From positions 1 to 8,171 of the forward strand of contig WRNK01000048.1 of NCBI GenBank assembly GCA_009776675.1: DNA of 8,171 nt, in the 5' to 3' direction. A program made the translations under genes and the position numbers. The notes beneath the pieces are model-generated. The model did not search any database. It had not been told where the DNA came from and saw only the letters and a program-made list of their open reading frames with translations. Below are positions 1,093 to 8,171 of this stretch, piece after piece. Position 1 is the stretch's first letter, and the number at the start of each line of letters is the position of its first letter. This DNA comes from Methanimicrococcus sp. Lineage in GTDB: Archaea; Halobacteriota; Methanosarcinia; Methanosarcinales; Methanosarcinaceae.

Positions 1093-3954
1093 ATGACGGA
1101 TCAATCTACCCCCGCAATGCGCCAGTATTATGAGGCCAAAGAAGAGTGTCCTGACGCTCTCGTTTTTTTCAGAATGGGGGACTTTTATGAGTCTTTTGGT
1201 GAGGATGCCAAATTGATTGCAAAAGAATTAGAAATTACACTGACAACCCGAGGCAAATCCAAAGATGGAAAGGATATGCCGCTTGCGGGGATTCCGTACC
1301 ATGCCATTGATACATATCTGCCGCGTCTGATTAAAAAGGGATATAAAGTTGCCATTTGTGAGCAATTGGAAAACCCCAAAAATGCAAAAGGCGTTGTTAA
1401 AAGAGGGGTTGTTCGTGTTGTAACACCGGGAACGGCAATTGATTCATCGATTATTACGGATGCTTCCAACAATTATTTGATGGCATTGGCAAGCTCTTAT
1501 AATCATGAAAACGAATCTTTTTCTAAAATTAAAAGAGCAAAAAATGCCGAAGAAGGAAATGAAACATTTGGCATTGCTTTTTTAGATATTTCAACCGGCG
1601 AATTTTTAGCAACACAATTTGAAGACGCGCCCCCTTATGAAAAAGTCGTCAGTGAAATTGCCAGATTCCGCCCAAGCGAATGTATTATTCAATCAGACTT
1701 AACTCAAAACGAGATGCTGATGAATCGGCTGACGGAAAACAGAGTGAAAACAGAAGCTTTTGAAACCGGAAAAAATGTTTCTGCAGATGTTAAAAAATAT
1801 GAAAGCGGTTTAATAAAACAATTCAAAACCGCCACATTAGAAGGGCTTGGCTTAAATGAAAAAGATTATGCGATTTTAGCCTGCGGAAAAACATTAGAGT
1901 ATGCTTTAAAAACGCAAATGAGAGCGTTGGATCAAATCCGTTCGGTTCAGTTTTATTCAATGTCAAAGCATTTGATATTGGACTCTATGACACTCAAAAA
2001 TTTGGAAATTATCAAAAATGTCAAAGACGATGGGAAAAATTATTCACTCATTTATGTTTTGGATCAAACAAAAACACCGATGGGAATGCGCCTGATTCGA
2101 AATTGGCTGCTTCGCCCGCTGGTTTATCCAAATGATATTAATCGGCGTTTAAATGCCGTTTCTGCACTCAAAGAAGACAATTTGCTTCGCTATGATTTAA
2201 GACGGCACCTTTCTGAAATTTCAGATTTAGAAAGACTGATCAGCCGTATGATTTATGGAAACTCTAATGCCAGAGATCTCATTTCAATGCGCAATTCTCT
2301 GGCAGAATTGCCGCAGCTGGTTAGTGTTTTAGCAGAATTGTGCGAAAATTCAAACTTGAATCCAAATGCAAATTCAAACCAAAATTCAAATCCAAATGCA
2401 AATTCAAACCTAAATGCAAACCAAAATGCAAACCAAAATTCAAATCAAAATTCAAATGCAAAATCGTTACTTTTAAACATTTGCGAAGAACTTTCGGATT
2501 GTGAATTCGCCGGCGAATTGACAGAATTGATTTCAAAAGCAATTGTCGATGACCCGCCGATTACCGTTCGAGAAGGTAAAATGATTCAATCGGGATATCG
2601 AGACGATTTGGATAAACTCCGAAACGCTTCCGGAGACAGCAAAGATTGGATGGCAAATTTTCAAACACAAGAGCGTGAAAAAACGGGTATCAAAAATTTA
2701 AAAGTCAGTTACAATAAAGTTTTCGGATACTTCATTGAAATCACAAACGCGAACAAAAACATGGTTCCCGATAACTACATCCGAAAACAAACAATCGCAA
2801 ATGGAGAGCGCTATTACACACCGGAATTAAAAGAGCGCGAGAATTTAATTTTAACAGCAGATGACGAATCTGTGGCATTAGAATATGAAATATTCAAAGA
2901 TGTGACAAATTGTGCCATTGCCTATGCCAAAGAAATTCAAAAAGCAGCTCAATTAATCGCTCAAATCGATGTTTTATGCAGTTTTGCAGAAGTTGCGGGA
3001 GAAAACAATTATATCTGCCCTCTTGTGGATGACAGTTTAGACATTCTGATCCGTGACGGGCGCCACCCTGTTGTTGAAAAAGCAACAAATGAAGCATTTA
3101 TTCCAAATGATACGGAAATGGATGCTGAAGAAAATCAATTTTTCCTAATCACCGGACCCAACATGGCCGGCAAATCCACATATATGCGTCAGATTGCAAT
3201 GATTGTCATTATGGCACAGGCCGGAAGCTTCGTGCCGGCCGCATATGCAAAAATCGGATCAGTGGATAGAATATTTACAAGAATTGGCGCTCACGATGAT
3301 TTGTCCGGCGGAAAAAGCACATTCATGGTTGAAATGGTGGAGCTTGCCAACATTTTAAACAACTCGGGAGAAAGAAACTTAATCCTTTTAGATGAAATCG
3401 GACGCGGAACCAGTACTTATGATGGTTACAGCATTGCAAAAGCTGCTGTTGAATATATTCACAATAAAGATAAAAGGGGTGTTCGGGCGCTTTTTGCAAC
3501 ACATTATCACCAATTAACAATCCTTGAAAACAAATTAAAGCGCCTTAAAAATTATCATATTGCGGTTCGTGAAACCGGAAACGATTTGGTTTTTTTAAGA
3601 AAAATCGTTCCGGGCGCTACCGATAAAAGTTACGGGATACATGTCGCAAAATTAGCCGGCGTTCCTGAAAAAGTGAATGACAGAGCCGCTGAAATCTTAA
3701 AAGAAATTGAGAATGAAAGTTTCACGGAAGAAGATGAAAAAGGCGGTAAAAAAAGAACATCGGCCCGTTATACGCAATTGCTGCTGTTTGATCCTGACGG
3801 GTCCGGCGAAGAACGTGTTGTTGAAAAATATATTGAAAATCCGATCATTGTTGAATTGAAATCGGAATTCAAAGACTTGGATGTCAATCAAATGACGCCG
3901 CTTCAAGCACTTTTGAAGCTGGAAGAAATCAAACAAAAATTACTTGAAAATTAA
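1093..3954 (+). CDS. mutS: DNA mismatch repair protein MutS
   Basis: MutS recognises mismatches and small loops in DNA as a dimer, then switches to an ATP-bound clamp that starts repair. The mismatch-reading Phe-X-Glu motif is F31-Y-E33 in MGDFYESFGEDA. The ATPase domain has Walker A TGPNMAGKST (687-696), the composite-site motif DDLSGGKSTFM (735-745) and Walker B LLDEIGRGTSTYDG with D767/E768. The C-terminal helical end (DLDVNQMTPLQALLKLEEIKQKL) is typical of MutS1. At 953 residues it is longer than E. coli MutS (853). Part of the excess is an (Asn-X)x19 insertion at residues 419-456 in the lever region, and there is a smaller extension near residues 140-158. The ATG at 1093 fits the family N-terminus; GTGAT (1085-1089) matches the distal part of the Shine-Dalgarno consensus. 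The stop is TAA. Bacterial-type MutS in mesophilic archaea is generally attributed to transfer. No mutL is adjacent. Confidence 0.97.
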   Translation: MTDQSTPAMRQYYEAKEECPDALVFFRMGDFYESFGEDAKLIAKELEITLTTRGKSKDGKDMPLAGIPYHAIDTYLPRLIKKGYKVAICEQLENPKNAKGVVKRGVVRVVTPGTAIDSSIITDASNNYLMALASSYNHENESFSKIKRAKNAEEGNETFGIAFLDISTGEFLATQFEDAPPYEKVVSEIARFRPSECIIQSDLTQNEMLMNRLTENRVKTEAFETGKNVSADVKKYESGLIKQFKTATLEGLGLNEKDYAILACGKTLEYALKTQMRALDQIRSVQFYSMSKHLILDSMTLKNLEIIKNVKDDGKNYSLIYVLDQTKTPMGMRLIRNWLLRPLVYPNDINRRLNAVSALKEDNLLRYDLRRHLSEISDLERLISRMIYGNSNARDLISMRNSLAELPQLVSVLAELCENSNLNPNANSNQNSNPNANSNLNANQNANQNSNQNSNAKSLLLNICEELSDCEFAGELTELISKAIVDDPPITVREGKMIQSGYRDDLDKLRNASGDSKDWMANFQTQEREKTGIKNLKVSYNKVFGYFIEITNANKNMVPDNYIRKQTIANGERYYTPELKERENLILTADDESVALEYEIFKDVTNCAIAYAKEIQKAAQLIAQIDVLCSFAEVAGENNYICPLVDDSLDILIRDGRHPVVEKATNEAFIPNDTEMDAEENQFFLITGPNMAGKSTYMRQIAMIVIMAQAGSFVPAAYAKIGSVDRIFTRIGAHDDLSGGKSTFMVEMVELANILNNSGERNLILLDEIGRGTSTYDGYSIAKAAVEYIHNKDKRGVRALFATHYHQLTILENKLKRLKNYHIAVRETGNDLVFLRKIVPGATDKSYGIHVAKLAGVPEKVNDRAAEILKEIENESFTEEDEKGGKKRTSARYTQLLLFDPDGSGEERVVEKYIENPIIVELKSEFKDLDVNQMTPLQALLKLEEIKQKLLEN
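2347..2460 (+). repeat. Hexanucleotide repeat encoding (Asn-X)x19 within mutS
   Basis: Nineteen consecutive hexamers each begin AAT or AAC, so every second residue from 419 to 455 is Asn. The alternate residues are Ser, Ala, Gln, Pro or Leu, all encoded by codons such as TCA, GCA, CCA and CAA. Common hexamers are AATTCA, AATGCA, AATCCA and AACCAA. The length is a multiple of 3 and the frame is kept. The tract lies in the lever part of MutS, after the ISDLERLISRM helix and before DDPPITVREG, where E. coli MutS has only a short connection. Confidence 0.9.
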
Positions 3955-4060: not shown

Positions 4061-4102
4061 TGTCTTATTTATGTCTTATTTATGTCTTATTTATCTTATT
4101 TA
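4061..4102 (+). repeat. 11-bp tandem repeat just upstream of cofE
   Basis: TGTCTTATTTA occurs three times in a row (4061-4071, 4072-4082, 4083-4093), followed by a 9-base partial copy TCTTATTTA (4094-4102). The array ends 10 bases before the cofE ATG. Each unit contains a TATA-like TTATTTAT, so the array overlaps where a cofE promoter or leader should lie. No clear Shine-Dalgarno site follows it. Confidence 0.85.
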
Positions 4103-4112
4103 TGAATTGTAA

Positions 4113-5015: not shown

Positions 5016-5061
5016 AGTCATGATAAGAACAACGAAGCAATTTGATGTTCCAATCATGACT
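5016..5061. other. Long inverted repeat (hairpin) in the cofE/pylD convergent spacer
   Basis: AGTCATGAT (5016-5024) is a perfect 9-base inverted match to ATCATGACT (5053-5061). A second pairing, GAACA (5027-5031) with TGTTC (5046-5050), lies inside it across a symmetric 2x2 internal loop, leaving a 14-base loop. The right arm belongs to the tandem repeat that follows, so a second right arm at 5081-5089 could compete. It may be a bidirectional 3'-end structure or the trace of a small element. Confidence 0.45.
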
Positions 5062-5107
5062 GCAACTGAAAAAATATTCAATCATGACTGCAACTGAAAA
5101 AAATATT
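5051..5107. repeat. Two tandem copies of a 28/29-bp repeat
   Basis: The segment 5051-5078 (28 bases, starting CAATCATGACTGCAACTG) is repeated directly at 5079-5107. The only difference is one extra A in the A-run. The sequence then continues CAATTCATT, the start of a possible third unit. Confidence 0.9.
5069..5103 (-). terminator. Duplicated oligo-T terminator of pylD
   Basis: On the minus strand the tandem repeat places T7 (5103-5097) and T6 (5074-5069) runs 20 and 49 bases past the pylD stop. Each follows GAATA. The duplication therefore gives pylD two successive archaeal-type terminators. Confidence 0.5.
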
Positions 5108-5122
5108 CAATTCATTCGTTTC

Positions 5123-5920
5123 TTATTTTTTCAAATCATCAAAAACCGCATACAACATGCTTAATGTTCCAATACCGAGTGGCTCTTGAACAATCTTGAT
5201 GTTGTATTTGTTTTGAAGCTCTTTTGAAAGACAACACGGGATTCCGGGTGTTGATAATAAAGAGCCTTGTCTCAAACAGTTTTCCGGAACTGTATCCGGA
5301 CACGGTGTGGCTTCAAAAATTTTGAAAAATACTTTTTTATCGGACGGATGATACGTCAAAACCGGATATTTTGAAACAATTTCTTCAATGCGTTTTGTGT
5401 CCACATCATAAACATGAACTTTTTTGCCGGCTTTTAAAAATGTTTCGAGTGCAGGTGTTCCGACTTTACCAAGACCAATGAGCAAAATATCATTTTCTTC
5501 CGGATAATCTTTGGCATGGCACAATATTTCGGCATAAATGCGACCGGTACTGATTTGATTGTGAGCAATTTTGCCGTTTTTCAGATTGTGGGCGACATAA
5601 GCCAAATCGTCTGCCATTAAAATGATATCTGCACCGTTTTTGACGGCTTCGTAATAGCCGGCAACATCTGTGTTTTTTGTAATAAAACCATCCATTCCGA
5701 ATTGTTGAACTGTAAAAAGCAAAGATTCCGAAAAGCGACCAATAATGCCGCCGCCGGCTGTAATCGGAATGATCGCAATCTTTTCATTCTTTTTTTCCGT
5801 GCCGTAAATGAGACGGCACAATTCATCCAGTGACAAACCGGTTAATTTCGAAATCAAACGGTCGTTTTCAACCAAACAGTTTCTCATATTCGCCAAATCT
5901 TCAGGCGTTAAAAGAGCCAT
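5123..5920 (-). CDS. pylD: Pyrrolysine synthase / 3-methylornithyl-N6-L-lysine dehydrogenase PylD
   Basis: PylD performs the last step of pyrrolysine biosynthesis: NAD-dependent oxidation of 3-methylornithyl-lysine, followed by ring closure. The 265-residue product is close to Methanosarcina PylD (about 259) and shares, from memory, the N-terminus MALLTPEDL, IIGRFSESL (59-67), DVAGYYEAVKNGADIILMADD (85-105) and AHNLKNGKIA (110-119). The Rossmann dinucleotide loop is GLGKVG (149-154), with the following strand ending YDVD (171-174). LSTPGIPC (222-229) and EPLGIGT (246-252) near the C-terminus are also family-typical. The ATG at 5920 is supported by GGGGAT upstream. The stop is TAA and the frame has no internal TAG. 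It lies 243 bases downstream of pylC on the same strand, separated by the 35-bp array. Confidence 0.97.
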   Translation of the reverse strand: MALLTPEDLANMRNCLVENDRLISKLTGLSLDELCRLIYGTEKKNEKIAIIPITAGGGIIGRFSESLLFTVQQFGMDGFITKNTDVAGYYEAVKNGADIILMADDLAYVAHNLKNGKIAHNQISTGRIYAEILCHAKDYPEENDILLIGLGKVGTPALETFLKAGKKVHVYDVDTKRIEEIVSKYPVLTYHPSDKKVFFKIFEATPCPDTVPENCLRQGSLLSTPGIPCCLSKELQNKYNIKIVQEPLGIGTLSMLYAVFDDLKK

Positions 5921-5926
5921 AATTAC

Positions 5927-5932
5927 ATCCCC
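5927..5932 (-). promoter_or_regulatory. Ribosome binding site of pylD
   Basis: On the minus strand AAAAGGGGAT precedes the pylD ATG at 5920 with a 6-base spacer. It is G-rich but not a perfect Shine-Dalgarno match, and it supports the MALLTPEDL start. Confidence 0.5.
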
Positions 5933-5940
5933 TTTTATTA

Positions 5941-6185
5941 TTGATCATATTGATCATTGTTGTTTTTTATAATTTATGATCGTCGTGATCATAATCGTTT
6001 TTTATAATTTATGGTCGCAGCGATCATAATCGTTTTTGATGATTTGTGATCGTATTGATCATAATCGTTTTTGATGATTTGTGATCATAGTGATCATAAT
6101 CGTTTTTTATAATTTATGATCATAGCGACCATAATCTTTTTTTATAATTTGTAATCGTAGTGATCATTGTCGTTTCTTATAATTC
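5941..6185 (-). repeat. Seven-unit 35-bp tandem array between pylC and pylD
   Basis: Seven units of exactly 35 bases lie at 5941, 5976, 6011, 6046, 6081, 6116 and 6151 (each start to +34). The typical plus-strand pattern is (A/G)TGATC, 5 variable bases, GATCATAATC, G, T5-6, (A/G)ATAATTT or a close variant. Each unit therefore has an inverted repeat around GATC-N5-GATC plus an A/T tract. The unit nearest pylC (6151-6185) overlaps its last six sense codons and stop (NYKKRQ-TGA). Read on the minus strand, the other units contain versions of the same codons, such as AAT TAT AAA AAA CGA TTA TGA. The edge units share CATTGT where inner units have CATAAT. Confidence 0.95.
5965..5972 (-). promoter_or_regulatory. 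TATA-like box upstream of pylD, repeated through the array
   Basis: The minus strand reads AATTATAAAAAAC, with TTATAAAA at 5972-5965 ending 44 bases before the pylD ATG. That position would place a start about 25 bases downstream with a short leader. Equivalent TTATAAAA words occur in the units starting at 5976, 6081 and 6116. In the 6011 and 6046 units the word has become TCATCAAAA, and in the 6151 unit it is TTATAAGA. Promoter function is inferred. Confidence 0.4.
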
Positions 6186-7378
6186 AAAATGATGGATTCC
6201 GCTGTTTTCTTTTTATATTCAGCTTCCTGTTGTGTTTTTGCATAACTGATAACCGTGTAAGCGCAATAATTATCATCTCCTGTGCACTCAAAAATTTCAA
6301 TACCGGATTCAAGGTTTGTTTGAATCGGGTAAAAATTGCTGCCGGCAGAAATCAGGTGTTCGCCACCTGAAATGAGTCTGTCATCCTTTAAAAGAAAATG
6401 TTCGAAAATACAATAAGAATCAATATATTTTGGATTGGTCACTTTGTGAAGGGAAGCTGTCGGTTCAAATGCCGGATGAAAGGACTCGACCAGCAAAAGA
6501 AGCAAGTTGACGCCGCACGAAAAATAAACACAAATGGGTGTTTGGCTTGGAAAACGTGCATCGATTTCAAGGACTTTCCAGCCTTTTTGGCTTGCAACAG
6601 CTTCAACATCCATCAATCCTTTCAGCGATAAACCCTTTGCCAAACGATAAGCAATGTCTCGATAACTTTCATCATATTGGAGCGGGGTGACTTTGAAACA
6701 ATCATAAACGTCGTCAATGTGAATGTGCGTCTCTTTAACAACAGCGTATTCTCTGCCGTTTCCGACAATTTCAAGAGAAACAACCGGACCCGTTAGATAT
6801 TCTTCAATCAGGTAATCACTTGGAACGGTTTTTAATTCGGCGTCCGTTTCAATGATTTGAGCACCGATGCTGCCGCTTTCTGACGGCGGTTTGACAAAAT
6901 ATGGCGGCTCAATTGGATGATCATCGGGCGTCGGGACATTAATTTTTCGGAAATAATTTTTAGATATTGTTTTGTTGCAGCTGACACGATAAGCATCGAA
7001 ATCAAAAAGAAGCGTACACTGAATTTCTTTTTGGACCGATTCCAAAAAAGCGATTGTTTCTTCGTTTTCATTGGTTGGAATCATATAATCGACTTTTTTT
7101 GAAAGCGTAATAAAACGATCTTTTTCTTTTGTGACATCAAAACAATGAAAGTCGTCACAAATGTTTTTCACAAGAGCGTTGGAATTTTTATCAATCAAAA
7201 TAACATGCATTCCGGCTTTTTTGGCAAGGTATGCCGCTTCTGAGCCTTGAAGTTTTCCGCCGATTAAACAAATACGCTTTCCGGCATAATCGTTTGGAAA
7301 ATCTGAATCAATTGAATGATTGACTAAATCTGAATCAATTGCATGATTGATTGAAGATGCCTTTTTTTCGTCTGTCAT
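6164..7378 (-). CDS. pylC: 3-methylornithine--L-lysine ligase PylC
   Basis: PylC is an ATP-grasp enzyme joining (3R)-3-methyl-D-ornithine (made by PylB) to the epsilon-amine of lysine. PylD uses the product. From the ATG the protein has 404 residues. Landmarks are ICLIGGKLQGSEAAYL (36-51), LFDFDAYRVS (124-133), PPYFVKPPSESGSIGA (158-173, ATP-binding Lys163), YLIEEYLTG (189-197), KGLMDVEA (253-260) and VLEIDARFPSQTP (269-281), all as in Methanosarcina PylC (about 363 residues). The extra length is mostly an N-terminal extension of about 33 residues containing a tandem 9-residue repeat. The ATG at 7378 has AAAGGA 6 bases upstream. A GTG at 7393 would add MKGII but has GGGAG directly abutting it. 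The stop is TGA. The last six sense codons lie inside the 35-bp repeat array. pylB is not upstream; pheA is. Confidence 0.96.
   Translation of the reverse strand: MTDEKKASSINHAIDSDLVNHSIDSDFPNDYAGKRICLIGGKLQGSEAAYLAKKAGMHVILIDKNSNALVKNICDDFHCFDVTKEKDRFITLSKKVDYMIPTNENEETIAFLESVQKEIQCTLLFDFDAYRVSCNKTISKNYFRKINVPTPDDHPIEPPYFVKPPSESGSIGAQIIETDAELKTVPSDYLIEEYLTGPVVSLEIVGNGREYAVVKETHIHIDDVYDCFKVTPLQYDESYRDIAYRLAKGLSLKGLMDVEAVASQKGWKVLEIDARFPSQTPICVYFSCGVNLLLLLVESFHPAFEPTASLHKVTNPKYIDSYCIFEHFLLKDDRLISGGEHLISAGSNFYPIQTNLESGIEIFECTGDDNYCAYTVISYAKTQQEAEYKKKTAESIILNYKKRQ
7298..7351 (-). repeat. 27-bp tandem duplication in the pylC 5' end
   Basis: The segments 7298-7324 and 7325-7351 are identical at 24 of 27 positions. 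They encode two 9-residue units, INHAIDSDL and VNHSIDSDF (PylC residues 10-27). The frame is preserved. The tract lies wholly in the N-terminal extension, before the ATP-grasp fold begins. Confidence 0.9.
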
Positions 7379-7384
7379 AATTAT

Positions 7385-7397
7385 TCCTTTCACTCCC
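7385..7397 (-). promoter_or_regulatory. Ribosome binding region that sets the pylC start
   Basis: The minus strand reads GGGAGTGAAAGGA, then ATAATT, then ATG at 7378. Both GGGAG (7397-7393) and AAAGGA (7390-7385) are usable for the ATG. For the GTG at 7393 the only purine block overlaps the codon, so the ATG is preferred. Confidence 0.6.
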
Positions 7398-7420
7398 TTT
7401 TAATGAACCGATTGATTGCG

Positions 7421-7427
7421 TTTTAAA
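7421..7427 (-). promoter_or_regulatory. Possible TATA box for pylC
   Basis: The minus strand has GCATTTAAAACGC, with TTTAAAA at 7427-7421, about 43 bases before the pylC ATG. It lies in the 106-base gap after pheA and would allow pylC to be transcribed separately. It is a weak match in AT-rich DNA. Confidence 0.3.
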
Positions 7428-7478
7428 TGCATTTCAAACTCTTTTTCTTTTTGGCTTTCGAGCTGTATCCCGTTTCTT

Positions 7479-7496
7479 TCTGCTGATAAAAGCAGA
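7479..7496. other. Short hairpin after pheA
   Basis: TCTGCT (7479-7484) and AGCAGA (7491-7496) form a 6-bp stem with a 6-base loop, 3 bases past the pheA stop on the minus strand. No T-tract follows, so it may be a weak 3'-end or processing structure and not a proven terminator. Confidence 0.3.
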
Positions 7497-7499
7497 TCA

Positions 7500-8171
7500 T
7501 TAAACATCAATCGTATGATAAGATCCTAAGTTTTTGAAGAAACTCGTTTTTCTTTTAATCATCGTAAGCGCATCGGAAACATCGGAAATATTCTCGTATC
7601 CCGAAATTTCAACGAAGAACGCATATTCCCCATGCCTGTTTTTTGTCGGACGCGATAGGATCTTCGTCATATTCAGATCCCATATGGCAAAGATGTCCAA
7701 GATCTTGTAAAGCTCCCCCGGTTTATCCTCTGTTGAGAATACGATGGATGTGCTGCATCCGGTCTTTGGCAACGATGTATCGGCTTTCGTCAGCAAAATG
7801 AACTGGGTTGTATTGTTCTTGTTGTTTTGGATATTTTCATGGATGATCTTAAGACCATAGACTTCGGCAGAATTCTTTGAGCCGATCGCCGCAATGATCT
7901 CTTCACTTCCCGGTTCGCAGCCGGCGGTGATCCTTGCTGCCTCCGCTGTTGAATTGACAATTTCAACAACCGCGCCCGGATAGGATTTGTTTAAAAATTT
8001 TCGGCATTGTGCCAACGCCTGAGGGTGTGACAAGATCTTTGTGATCTTGCTGCCGGCATTCTTTTCGTTGATCATCAGATTTTGCTCAATCGGCATCGTC
8101 AGTTGTTTCAAAATAAAAAGCTTGGAATCAAAAATCAGCGTGTCAATTGTTGTGTTCACTGCTCCTTCGAT
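7500..8171 (-). CDS. pheA: Prephenate dehydratase, partial (5' end outside the window)
   Basis: This enzyme converts prephenate to phenylpyruvate, the committed step to phenylalanine. The visible 223 residues start at IEGAVNTTID, the family NSIEGAVN motif, so the frame continues past the right edge. The in-frame GTG at 8159 is Val in this motif and not a start. Next come the family motif SHPQALAQCRKFL (48-60) and NNTTQF (119-124), matching the catalytic N-x-T-R-F motif with Arg replaced by Gln. A regulatory ACT domain occupies about residues 141-215 (SIVFSTEDKPGELYKIL). Its phenylalanine-binding motifs are altered: GALV reads GELY and ESRP reads LSRP. Roughly the first 75-80 residues are missing. 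The stop is TAA. Codon use seems to favour AAG and ATC more than pylC and pylD do. It is monofunctional, with no chorismate mutase domain after the ACT domain. Confidence 0.93.
   Translation of the reverse strand: MEGAVNTTIDTLIFDSKLFILKQLTMPIEQNLMINEKNAGSKITKILSHPQALAQCRKFLNKSYPGAVVEIVNSTAEAARITAGCEPGSEEIIAAIGSKNSAEVYGLKIIHENIQNNKNNTTQFILLTKADTSLPKTGCSTSIVFSTEDKPGELYKILDIFAIWDLNMTKILSRPTKNRHGEYAFFVEISGYENISDVSDALTMIKRKTSFFKNLGSYHTIDV

What the first reader, a model, noticed from the sequence alone, without database searches (positions are those of the whole stretch)
5941..6185. 35-bp x7 array that appears to have grown out of the 3' end of pylC
The array has no length variation and its first unit overlaps the last six sense codons and stop of pylC. 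Read on the minus strand, the unit at 6151 encodes NYKKRQ-stop. The 5976 and 6081 units encode NYKKRL-stop, the 6011 and 6046 units NHQKRL-stop, and the 5941 unit NYKKQQ-stop. The 6116 unit encodes NYKKRLW, having lost its stop (TGG). The simplest reading is repeated duplication of the gene's tail plus a short spacer, pushing pylD away from pylC, to which it is normally close. The expansion is inferred; the repeat and its overlap with the coding end are seen directly.
Basis: partly seen in the sequence, partly recalled or inferred. Interest (0 to 1): 0.72.

Follow-up and report, generated by a model that had tools for sequence, protein, structure and literature searches.

The report
Tandem array grown from pylC tail
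A gut methanogen carries seven copies of a 35-letter DNA unit between two pyrrolysine genes; the copies most likely grew by duplication of the first gene's end, in a lineage rich in such repeats, so the case is mostly ordinary.

Summary
The array is real: window 5941-6185, period 35, seven units, no indels, with the first unit covering the last six sense codons and TGA stop of pylC. The window is Methanimicrococcus-like. Local growth from the pylC tail is the best reading. Three close PylC orthologues end SIILNYKKQI, SIILNYKK and SIILNGKK, so the coding part of the unit looks like native gene tail. The unit was found nowhere else in the window and as no array in 111 family genomes (at most 7 candidates scored per genome). 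Of six other Methanimicrococcus genomes, two have their own unrelated arrays in this spacer and four have spacers of 13-44 bp. The array is not special: sampled Methanimicrococcus sequence holds 1.0-10.9 tandem arrays per 10 kb against 0.31 in Methanolobus and kin, and arrays cross stop codons about as often as random placement predicts. Methanosarcina is already known as satellite-rich (PMC6749651). One curiosity is an unbroken chain of ATGA-linked mini-ORFs from pylC into pylD, which could relay ribosomes; controls do not show selection for it. The window's own genome and sister strains could not be examined.

The parts
5941..6185 (-). 35-bp x7 tandem array between pylC and pylD (units u1 6151-6185, u2 6116-6150, u3 6081-6115, u4 6046-6080, u5 6011-6045, u6 5976-6010, u7 5941-5975)
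   Evidence: TRF, the repeat finder, unit table and lag analysis
6164..7378 (-). pylC (3-methylornithine--L-lysine ligase), TGA stop at 6164-6166 inside u1
   Evidence: NCBIfam TIGR03909, E 3.4e-126; ORF list
6151..6185 (-). u1: last six sense codons NYKKRQ, stop, and the first copy of the spacer part
   Evidence: orthologue tails
5123..5920 (-). pylD (3-methylornithyl-N6-L-lysine dehydrogenase), start ATG at 5920
   Evidence: NCBIfam TIGR03911, E 3e-82
5901..6167 (-). Chain of seven mini-ORFs linked by ATGA overlaps: 6167-6120, 6123-6094, 6097-6059, 6062-6024, 6027-5989, 5992-5954, 5957-5901; the last overlaps the pylD start by 20 nt
   Evidence: chain complete with restarts of at most 4 nt; controls do not show selection

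Best explanation
The array is a locally born minisatellite. A stretch of about 35 bp holding the last codons and TGA stop of pylC plus a short spacer, itself containing a doubled 9-bp piece, was duplicated in tandem several times, probably by replication slippage or unequal recombination. The copies then drifted apart. pylC stays intact because its own tail is the first unit, and pylD keeps a purine-rich stretch (AAAAGGGGATG) that may bind the ribosome and its ATG after the last unit, so the growth probably cost little and was tolerated. The only shown effect is to put 243 bp between pylC and pylD. Shown: the array, its overlap with a pylC tail shared by orthologues, no further array of the unit in the sequences searched, and unrelated arrays in the same spacer of relatives. 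Inferred: the duplication mechanism, the direction from tail to array, and near-neutrality.
For: (1) Orthologue tails suggest NYKK is native PylC. (2) In 111 family genomes two matches reach E 0.001, short ones of 34 and 24 bp (at most 7 candidates scored per genome); TRF finds no array where they lie. A third short match (E 0.0023) in G005, where all candidates were scored, also lies in no array. No exact match of a 24-base pattern in viral contigs and no plasmid or phage match. (3) The orthologous spacer is 13, 18, 18 and 44 bp in four Methanimicrococcus genomes; it carries an unrelated 19-bp array of 5.3 copies in L002 (spacer 130 bp) and a 12-bp array of 3.8 copies in G007 (spacer 64 bp). 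(4) Ten of 19 pylC-pylD spacers of at least 40 nt are tandem-repetitive at z>3, against 22 of 72 other co-directional spacers in the loci of Methanimicrococcus, Methanosarcina and near relatives (Fisher p=0.10, so no proven hotspot) and 1 of 28 sampled of 82 in the remaining loci. (5) Arrays per 10 kb: G002 10.9, G001 6.4, window 6.1, G007 5.9, G004 5.2, Methanosarcina-type loci 4.7, G005 1.7, G003 1.0, Methanolobus and kin 0.31. (6) Intergenic arrays in six Methanimicrococcus genomes have periods spread over mod 3 classes 0, 1, 2 as 106, 86, 92, while coding arrays are mostly class 0 (136 of 190), as expected if intergenic ones are little constrained. (7) Substitutions between units fall at mini-ORF codon positions 1, 2, 3 as 10, 9, 2, so no conserved peptide is seen.
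Against: Unit u6 holds an 8-bp perfect stem that only 6 of 1000 shuffled units reach, and the RNA of either strand folds better than all 200 shuffles (z -5.3 and -5.6). The ATGA chain is unbroken, which 272 of 4964 randomly substituted arrays manage, or 482 of 5000 if u1 is held fixed. Either could mean some selected role. The array's state in the closest relatives is unknown, and the orthologue tails were seen as predicted proteins only.
Confidence: 0.8

Rival explanations
1. Translational relay. Each unit carries ATGATC or ATGG, so the pylC stop overlaps a start codon by 4 nt (ATGA). The mini-ORF from that start ends in a later ATGA, and so on until the last mini-ORF ends 20 nt inside pylD. 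Ribosomes leaving pylC would restart seven times and arrive at pylD, keeping translational coupling across 243 nt.
For: Chain complete with all seven restarts at -4 nt. In Haloferax volcanii and E. coli gene pairs, coupling is strongest at short overlaps and nearly gone at intergenic distances of about 20 nt (PMC10666635, passages). Few random units give a complete chain with restarts of at most 4 nt: 14 of 2988 column-permuted units, 30 of 2960 shuffled units, 49 of 2000 shuffled spacers.
Against: Given the real tail, a complete chain is not rare (p 0.18). Over 29 stop-spanning arrays, the window's included, covered length is not clearly above controls (p 0.35 at 4 nt, 0.07 at 8 nt). If the last step of 20 nt is counted, 238 of 1000 shuffled spacers do as well, and three of 18 other pylC-pylD spacers (L010, L015, L045; largest step 18, 18, 13 nt) match or beat it without standing out from shuffles; none of the 18 has a chain of steps of 4 nt or less reaching pylD. 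The L002 array gives a single link. Intergenic periods show no preference for 2 mod 3. Seven successive restarts would each be expected to lose ribosomes.
Confidence: 0.1
2. A selected regulatory array: each unit is a palindromic DNA-binding site or an RNA hairpin that tunes pylD expression or mRNA stability.
For: 8-bp stem in u6, reached by 6 of 1000 shuffled units; RNA fold z -5.3 on the sense strand; 11 GATC sites in 245 bp against 31 in the other 7926 bp; two of nine stem positions show a paired change on both sides, in one unit each.
Against: Stem pairs are broken in 11 of 63 cells and only one of seven units (u2) is fully paired, with G-T pairs. The palindrome follows partly from doubling a piece with self-complementary TGATCA. 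No array of the unit in relatives. No Rfam match at gathering thresholds. The shuffles do not keep the repetition, so the fold z-scores are inflated.
Confidence: 0.07
3. A dispersed or mobile repeat family that landed at the pylC end.
For: None found; the own genome could not be searched.
Against: No array of the unit in 111 family genomes (at most 7 candidates scored per genome), no match in viral contigs, plasmids or phages, none elsewhere in the window; the unit contains codons shared with orthologous pylC tails.
Confidence: 0.03

Closest known systems
Satellites (tandem repeats) of Methanosarcina, PMC6749651 (passages and section 8 seen)
   Same: Many head-to-tail arrays over the chromosome, in the same family
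   Different: In that paper most Methanosarcina satellites have units under 30 nt. This one has a 35-bp unit, lies in a Methanimicrococcus-like genome (no such genome in the table rows that I saw), and its first unit is a gene tail
Tandem repeat regions of Borg elements, PMC9879509 (passages seen)
   Same: Fast-arising, independent arrays; [quoted passage not shown] A-enriched
   Different: Borgs are extrachromosomal elements, with units largely described as perfect or nearly perfect in the passages seen; here the units have drifted to 24-32 of 35 identity and sit beside ordinary chromosomal genes
Termination-reinitiation at ATGA overlaps in archaea, PMC6728339 (listing and abstract start) and PMC10666635 (passages)
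   Same: Every link of the mini-ORF chain is the -4 nt ATGA overlap that supports coupling
   Different: The cases in the passages seen are pairs of real genes; a chain of seven non-coding mini-ORFs is not described there, and nothing here shows that it is translated

Membership tests
Prokaryotic minisatellite / satellite | Head-to-tail copies without spacers | tested here: met
   Period 35, 0% indels
Prokaryotic minisatellite / satellite | Unit private to the locus | tested here: inconclusive
   No other array in 111 family genomes (at most 7 candidates scored per genome) or in the window; own genome not held
Prokaryotic minisatellite / satellite | Copy number varies between strains | not testable with these tools
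Prokaryotic minisatellite / satellite | Lineage rich in independent arrays | tested here: met
   1.0-10.9 arrays per 10 kb in sampled stretches of six Methanimicrococcus genomes
CRISPR array | Repeats separated by unique spacers | tested here: not met
   Units are contiguous and repeat over their full 35 bp
Dispersed palindromic repeat (REP/MITE type) | Copies at many unrelated sites | tested here: inconclusive
   No convincing copy in relatives; own genome not held
Termination-reinitiation coupling | Stop and start overlap by 4 or 1 nt, or lie within about 20 nt | tested here: met
   Seven -4 nt overlaps; the last step to pylD is a 20-nt overlap
Termination-reinitiation coupling | Downstream translation depends on upstream translation | not testable with these tools
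   Needs reporter or ribosome-profiling data

The most novel reading that the evidence does not exclude
The minisatellite keeps pylC and pylD translationally coupled by acting as a ribosome relay: seven ATGA-linked mini-ORFs hand terminating ribosomes across 243 nt. A tandem duplication with period 2 mod 3 of a tail ending in ATGA would then be self-rescuing, because it lengthens a spacer without uncoupling the genes.
Probability: 0.1. Interest if true: 0.65.

Novelty: new member of a known kind. Interest (0 to 1): 0.22.

Why it matters
It shows how operon spacers can lengthen in archaea: tandem growth that takes in a gene's stop codon and leaves both genes readable, with unrelated arrays in the same pyrrolysine-gene spacer of several species. 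The wider point is that gut Methanimicrococcus, a genus discussed in print for genome reduction (PMC11362671), can hold up to about 10% of sampled bases in tandem arrays (G002). If the relay were real, spacer growth need not break translational coupling.

Tried and rejected
Own-genome search and relatives around the window: no genome is held. Mobile or viral origin: no matches. Known RNA family: none at gathering thresholds. Conserved peptide in the units: not seen, substitutions by codon position 10, 9, 2. Conserved hairpin: weak, 11 of 63 stem cells broken. Selected ribosome relay: not supported by controls. pylC-pylD as a special hotspot: 10 of 19 against 22 of 72, p=0.10; the 19 leave out spacers under 40 nt and the G007 spacer. 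Gene ends as preferred birthplaces: 39 arrays cross a stop against 43.7 expected over six Methanimicrococcus genomes; 19 cross a start against 43.5 expected, so starts look avoided. Gene calling was a simple ORF rule that takes the most upstream start, so the start figure is rough. Hit in G005: at L057 1501-1535, read, overlapped only by ORFs of 62 aa or less and in no array; taken as chance. Hits in G104 and G101: TRF on L083 and L084 shows no array at the match. TGA stops are over-represented among stop-spanning arrays, 20 of 29 against 173 of 384 (p=0.02), one of several comparisons and not pursued. In one search, 56 loci were examined; L046 had no pylC in the stretch and drops out, and negative spacers for L048, L050 and L052 partly reflect alignment limits. 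In one search the third control group was sampled (28 of 82). One search looked for neighbouring genes in ten chosen loci of 56. One search listed the best 120 of 1430 PylC relatives, of which 36 were aligned.

Full report
What is there. The 8171-base window reads mutS, cofE, pylD, pylC and prephenate dehydratase. Between pylC (stop ending at 6164) and pylD (start at 5920) lie 243 bases, nearly all occupied by 35-bp units without indels, seven in all. The first unit begins inside pylC.

Anatomy. On the sense (minus) strand the consensus unit is AAATTATAAAAAACGATTATGATCACTACGATCAC: 17 bp followed by two 9-bp near-copies. Units agree in 24-32 of 35 positions. First and last units share ACAATGATC where the others have ATTATGATC or ATTATGGTC, as if the inner units expanded later (inference). 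The doubled TATGATCAC also makes an imperfect palindrome. Its best perfect stem, 8 bp in u6, is reached by 6 of 1000 shuffled units, but 11 of 63 stem cells are broken across the seven units, and two of nine positions show a paired change on both sides, each in one unit. RNA of both strands folds better than all 200 shuffles, which repetition of a palindromic unit would give by itself.

Origin. Three PylC proteins of 86-88% identity end in SIILNYKKQI, SIILNYKK and SIILNGKK; among more distant ones some end in ILNQK or ILSQK. NYKK therefore looks like an old gene end and not like sequence brought in by an array. These are predicted proteins, and their DNA could not be fetched. The unit was sought in six genomes reached through loci L001-L006, in the six genomes held for the genus and in 111 of the family; these sets overlap, and in the family search at most 7 candidates per genome were scored. 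The best match in the first two searches is one 35-bp stretch in G005 at E 0.0023, in no array; one search also listed weaker short matches at chance level in all six genomes. In the family search two genomes have short matches (34 bp at 89%, 24 bp at 96%), neither in an array. Plasmids, phages and viral contigs gave nothing.

Comparison of the spacer. The spacer is 13 bp in L003, 18 in M. blatticola (L004) and in L005, 44 in L001, 130 in Ca. M. labiotermitis (L002), and 64 in G007. L002 carries 5.3 copies of an unrelated 19-bp unit beginning six bases after the pylC stop. G007 carries a 12-bp repeat at the pylC end (3.8 copies) and another that begins inside the end of pylB (PylB by NCBIfam TIGR03910). 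In loci titled Methanosarcina spacers run from 27 to 198 bp, several with their own repeats; in Methanolobus, Methanohalophilus, Methanococcoides and kin they mostly run from 1 bp of overlap to 19 bp apart.

How ordinary. With one TRF setting (score 50, period 9 or more), sampled Methanimicrococcus sequence holds 1.0 to 10.9 arrays per 10 kb; in G002, 283 arrays amount to 9.8% of 260 kb. Methanosarcina-type loci have 4.7 and the Methanolobus group 0.31. Over the six Methanimicrococcus genomes, 39 arrays cross a stop codon, against 43.7 expected if the arrays were placed at random with their intergenic or coding preference kept. Overlap with a gene end is therefore what a repeat-rich genome gives. 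Tandem-repeat richness is in print for Methanosarcina (PMC6749651, passages and section 8). Arrays whose first unit lies partly in a gene end are in print for Borgs (PMC9879509, passages). A search for papers with both 'Methanimicrococcus' and 'tandem repeat' returned none in the held library, and two genome papers of the genus do not use 'tandem repeat' in their main text (PMC11362671, PMC9723798; term look-ups).

The ribosome-relay idea. The pylC stop reads AATGA, so a start codon overlaps it by four bases. The mini-ORF from there and each later one end in another ATGA; u2 has lost one stop, but a second ATGA three codons on takes over. The last ends 20 bases inside pylD. Coupling by termination-reinitiation in H. 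volcanii and E. coli is strongest at such overlaps and nearly gone at gaps of about 20 nt (PMC10666635, passages). With restarts of at most 4 nt the chain is rare for random units (14 of 2988 and 30 of 2960) and shuffled spacers (49 of 2000), and survives in 272 of 4964 randomly substituted arrays, or 482 of 5000 with u1 held fixed. However, a chain follows easily once a tail ending in ATGA is duplicated with a period of 2 mod 3. With the tail fixed the chance is 0.18, and across 29 stop-spanning arrays, the window's included, there is no clear excess (p 0.35 or 0.07). Counting the last 20-nt step, 238 of 1000 shuffled spacers do as well. None of 18 other pylC-pylD spacers of at least 40 nt has a chain of steps of 4 nt or less reaching pylD; three (L010, L015, L045) can be crossed with steps of at most 18 nt, no better than shuffles. 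Intergenic periods show no frame preference. I keep it as the most novel reading, at 10%.

Verdict. The feature is a new member of a known kind. The more useful lesson is genus-wide: gut Methanimicrococcus chromosomes grow tandem arrays in many spacers, and the pylC-pylD spacer holds unrelated ones in at least three of seven Methanimicrococcus-type genomes looked at, the window included.

Noticed in passing
window 7379-8171; compare L002-L006, L008, L011, L022: pylB lies directly upstream of pylC in eight of ten loci checked (the other two are cut off too early), but in the window prephenate dehydratase stands there and no pylB is found in the 8 kb: the pyl genes have been rearranged in this lineage.
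   Followed up: partly
window 2346-2462: In-frame Asn-rich repeat (12/30 bp) inside mutS, within the MutS domain III match: a repeat insertion in a mismatch-repair gene of a repeat-rich lineage.
   Followed up: no
window 7299-7350: 27-bp in-frame duplication in the PylC N-terminus; relative P0124 has a longer repetitive N-terminal extension.
   Followed up: no
window 4061-4104 and 5051-5111: Two further small tandem arrays: 11 bp x4 just before cofE, 28 bp x2 in the gap between the convergent ends of cofE and pylD.
   Followed up: no
L110-L122 (G002): 283 tandem arrays of period 9 or more in 260 kb, 9.8% of bases, about 35 times the density in Methanolobus and kin.
   Followed up: partly
L003, L005, L110-L147: Arrays crossing a start codon look avoided: 19 against 43.5 expected over six Methanimicrococcus genomes, with rough gene starts.
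   Followed up: no
L003 3921-3984: PylC of this locus has an extra C-terminal tail (ending SFQVRPAASRRPDLENKN) not seen in the other aligned relatives.
   Followed up: no
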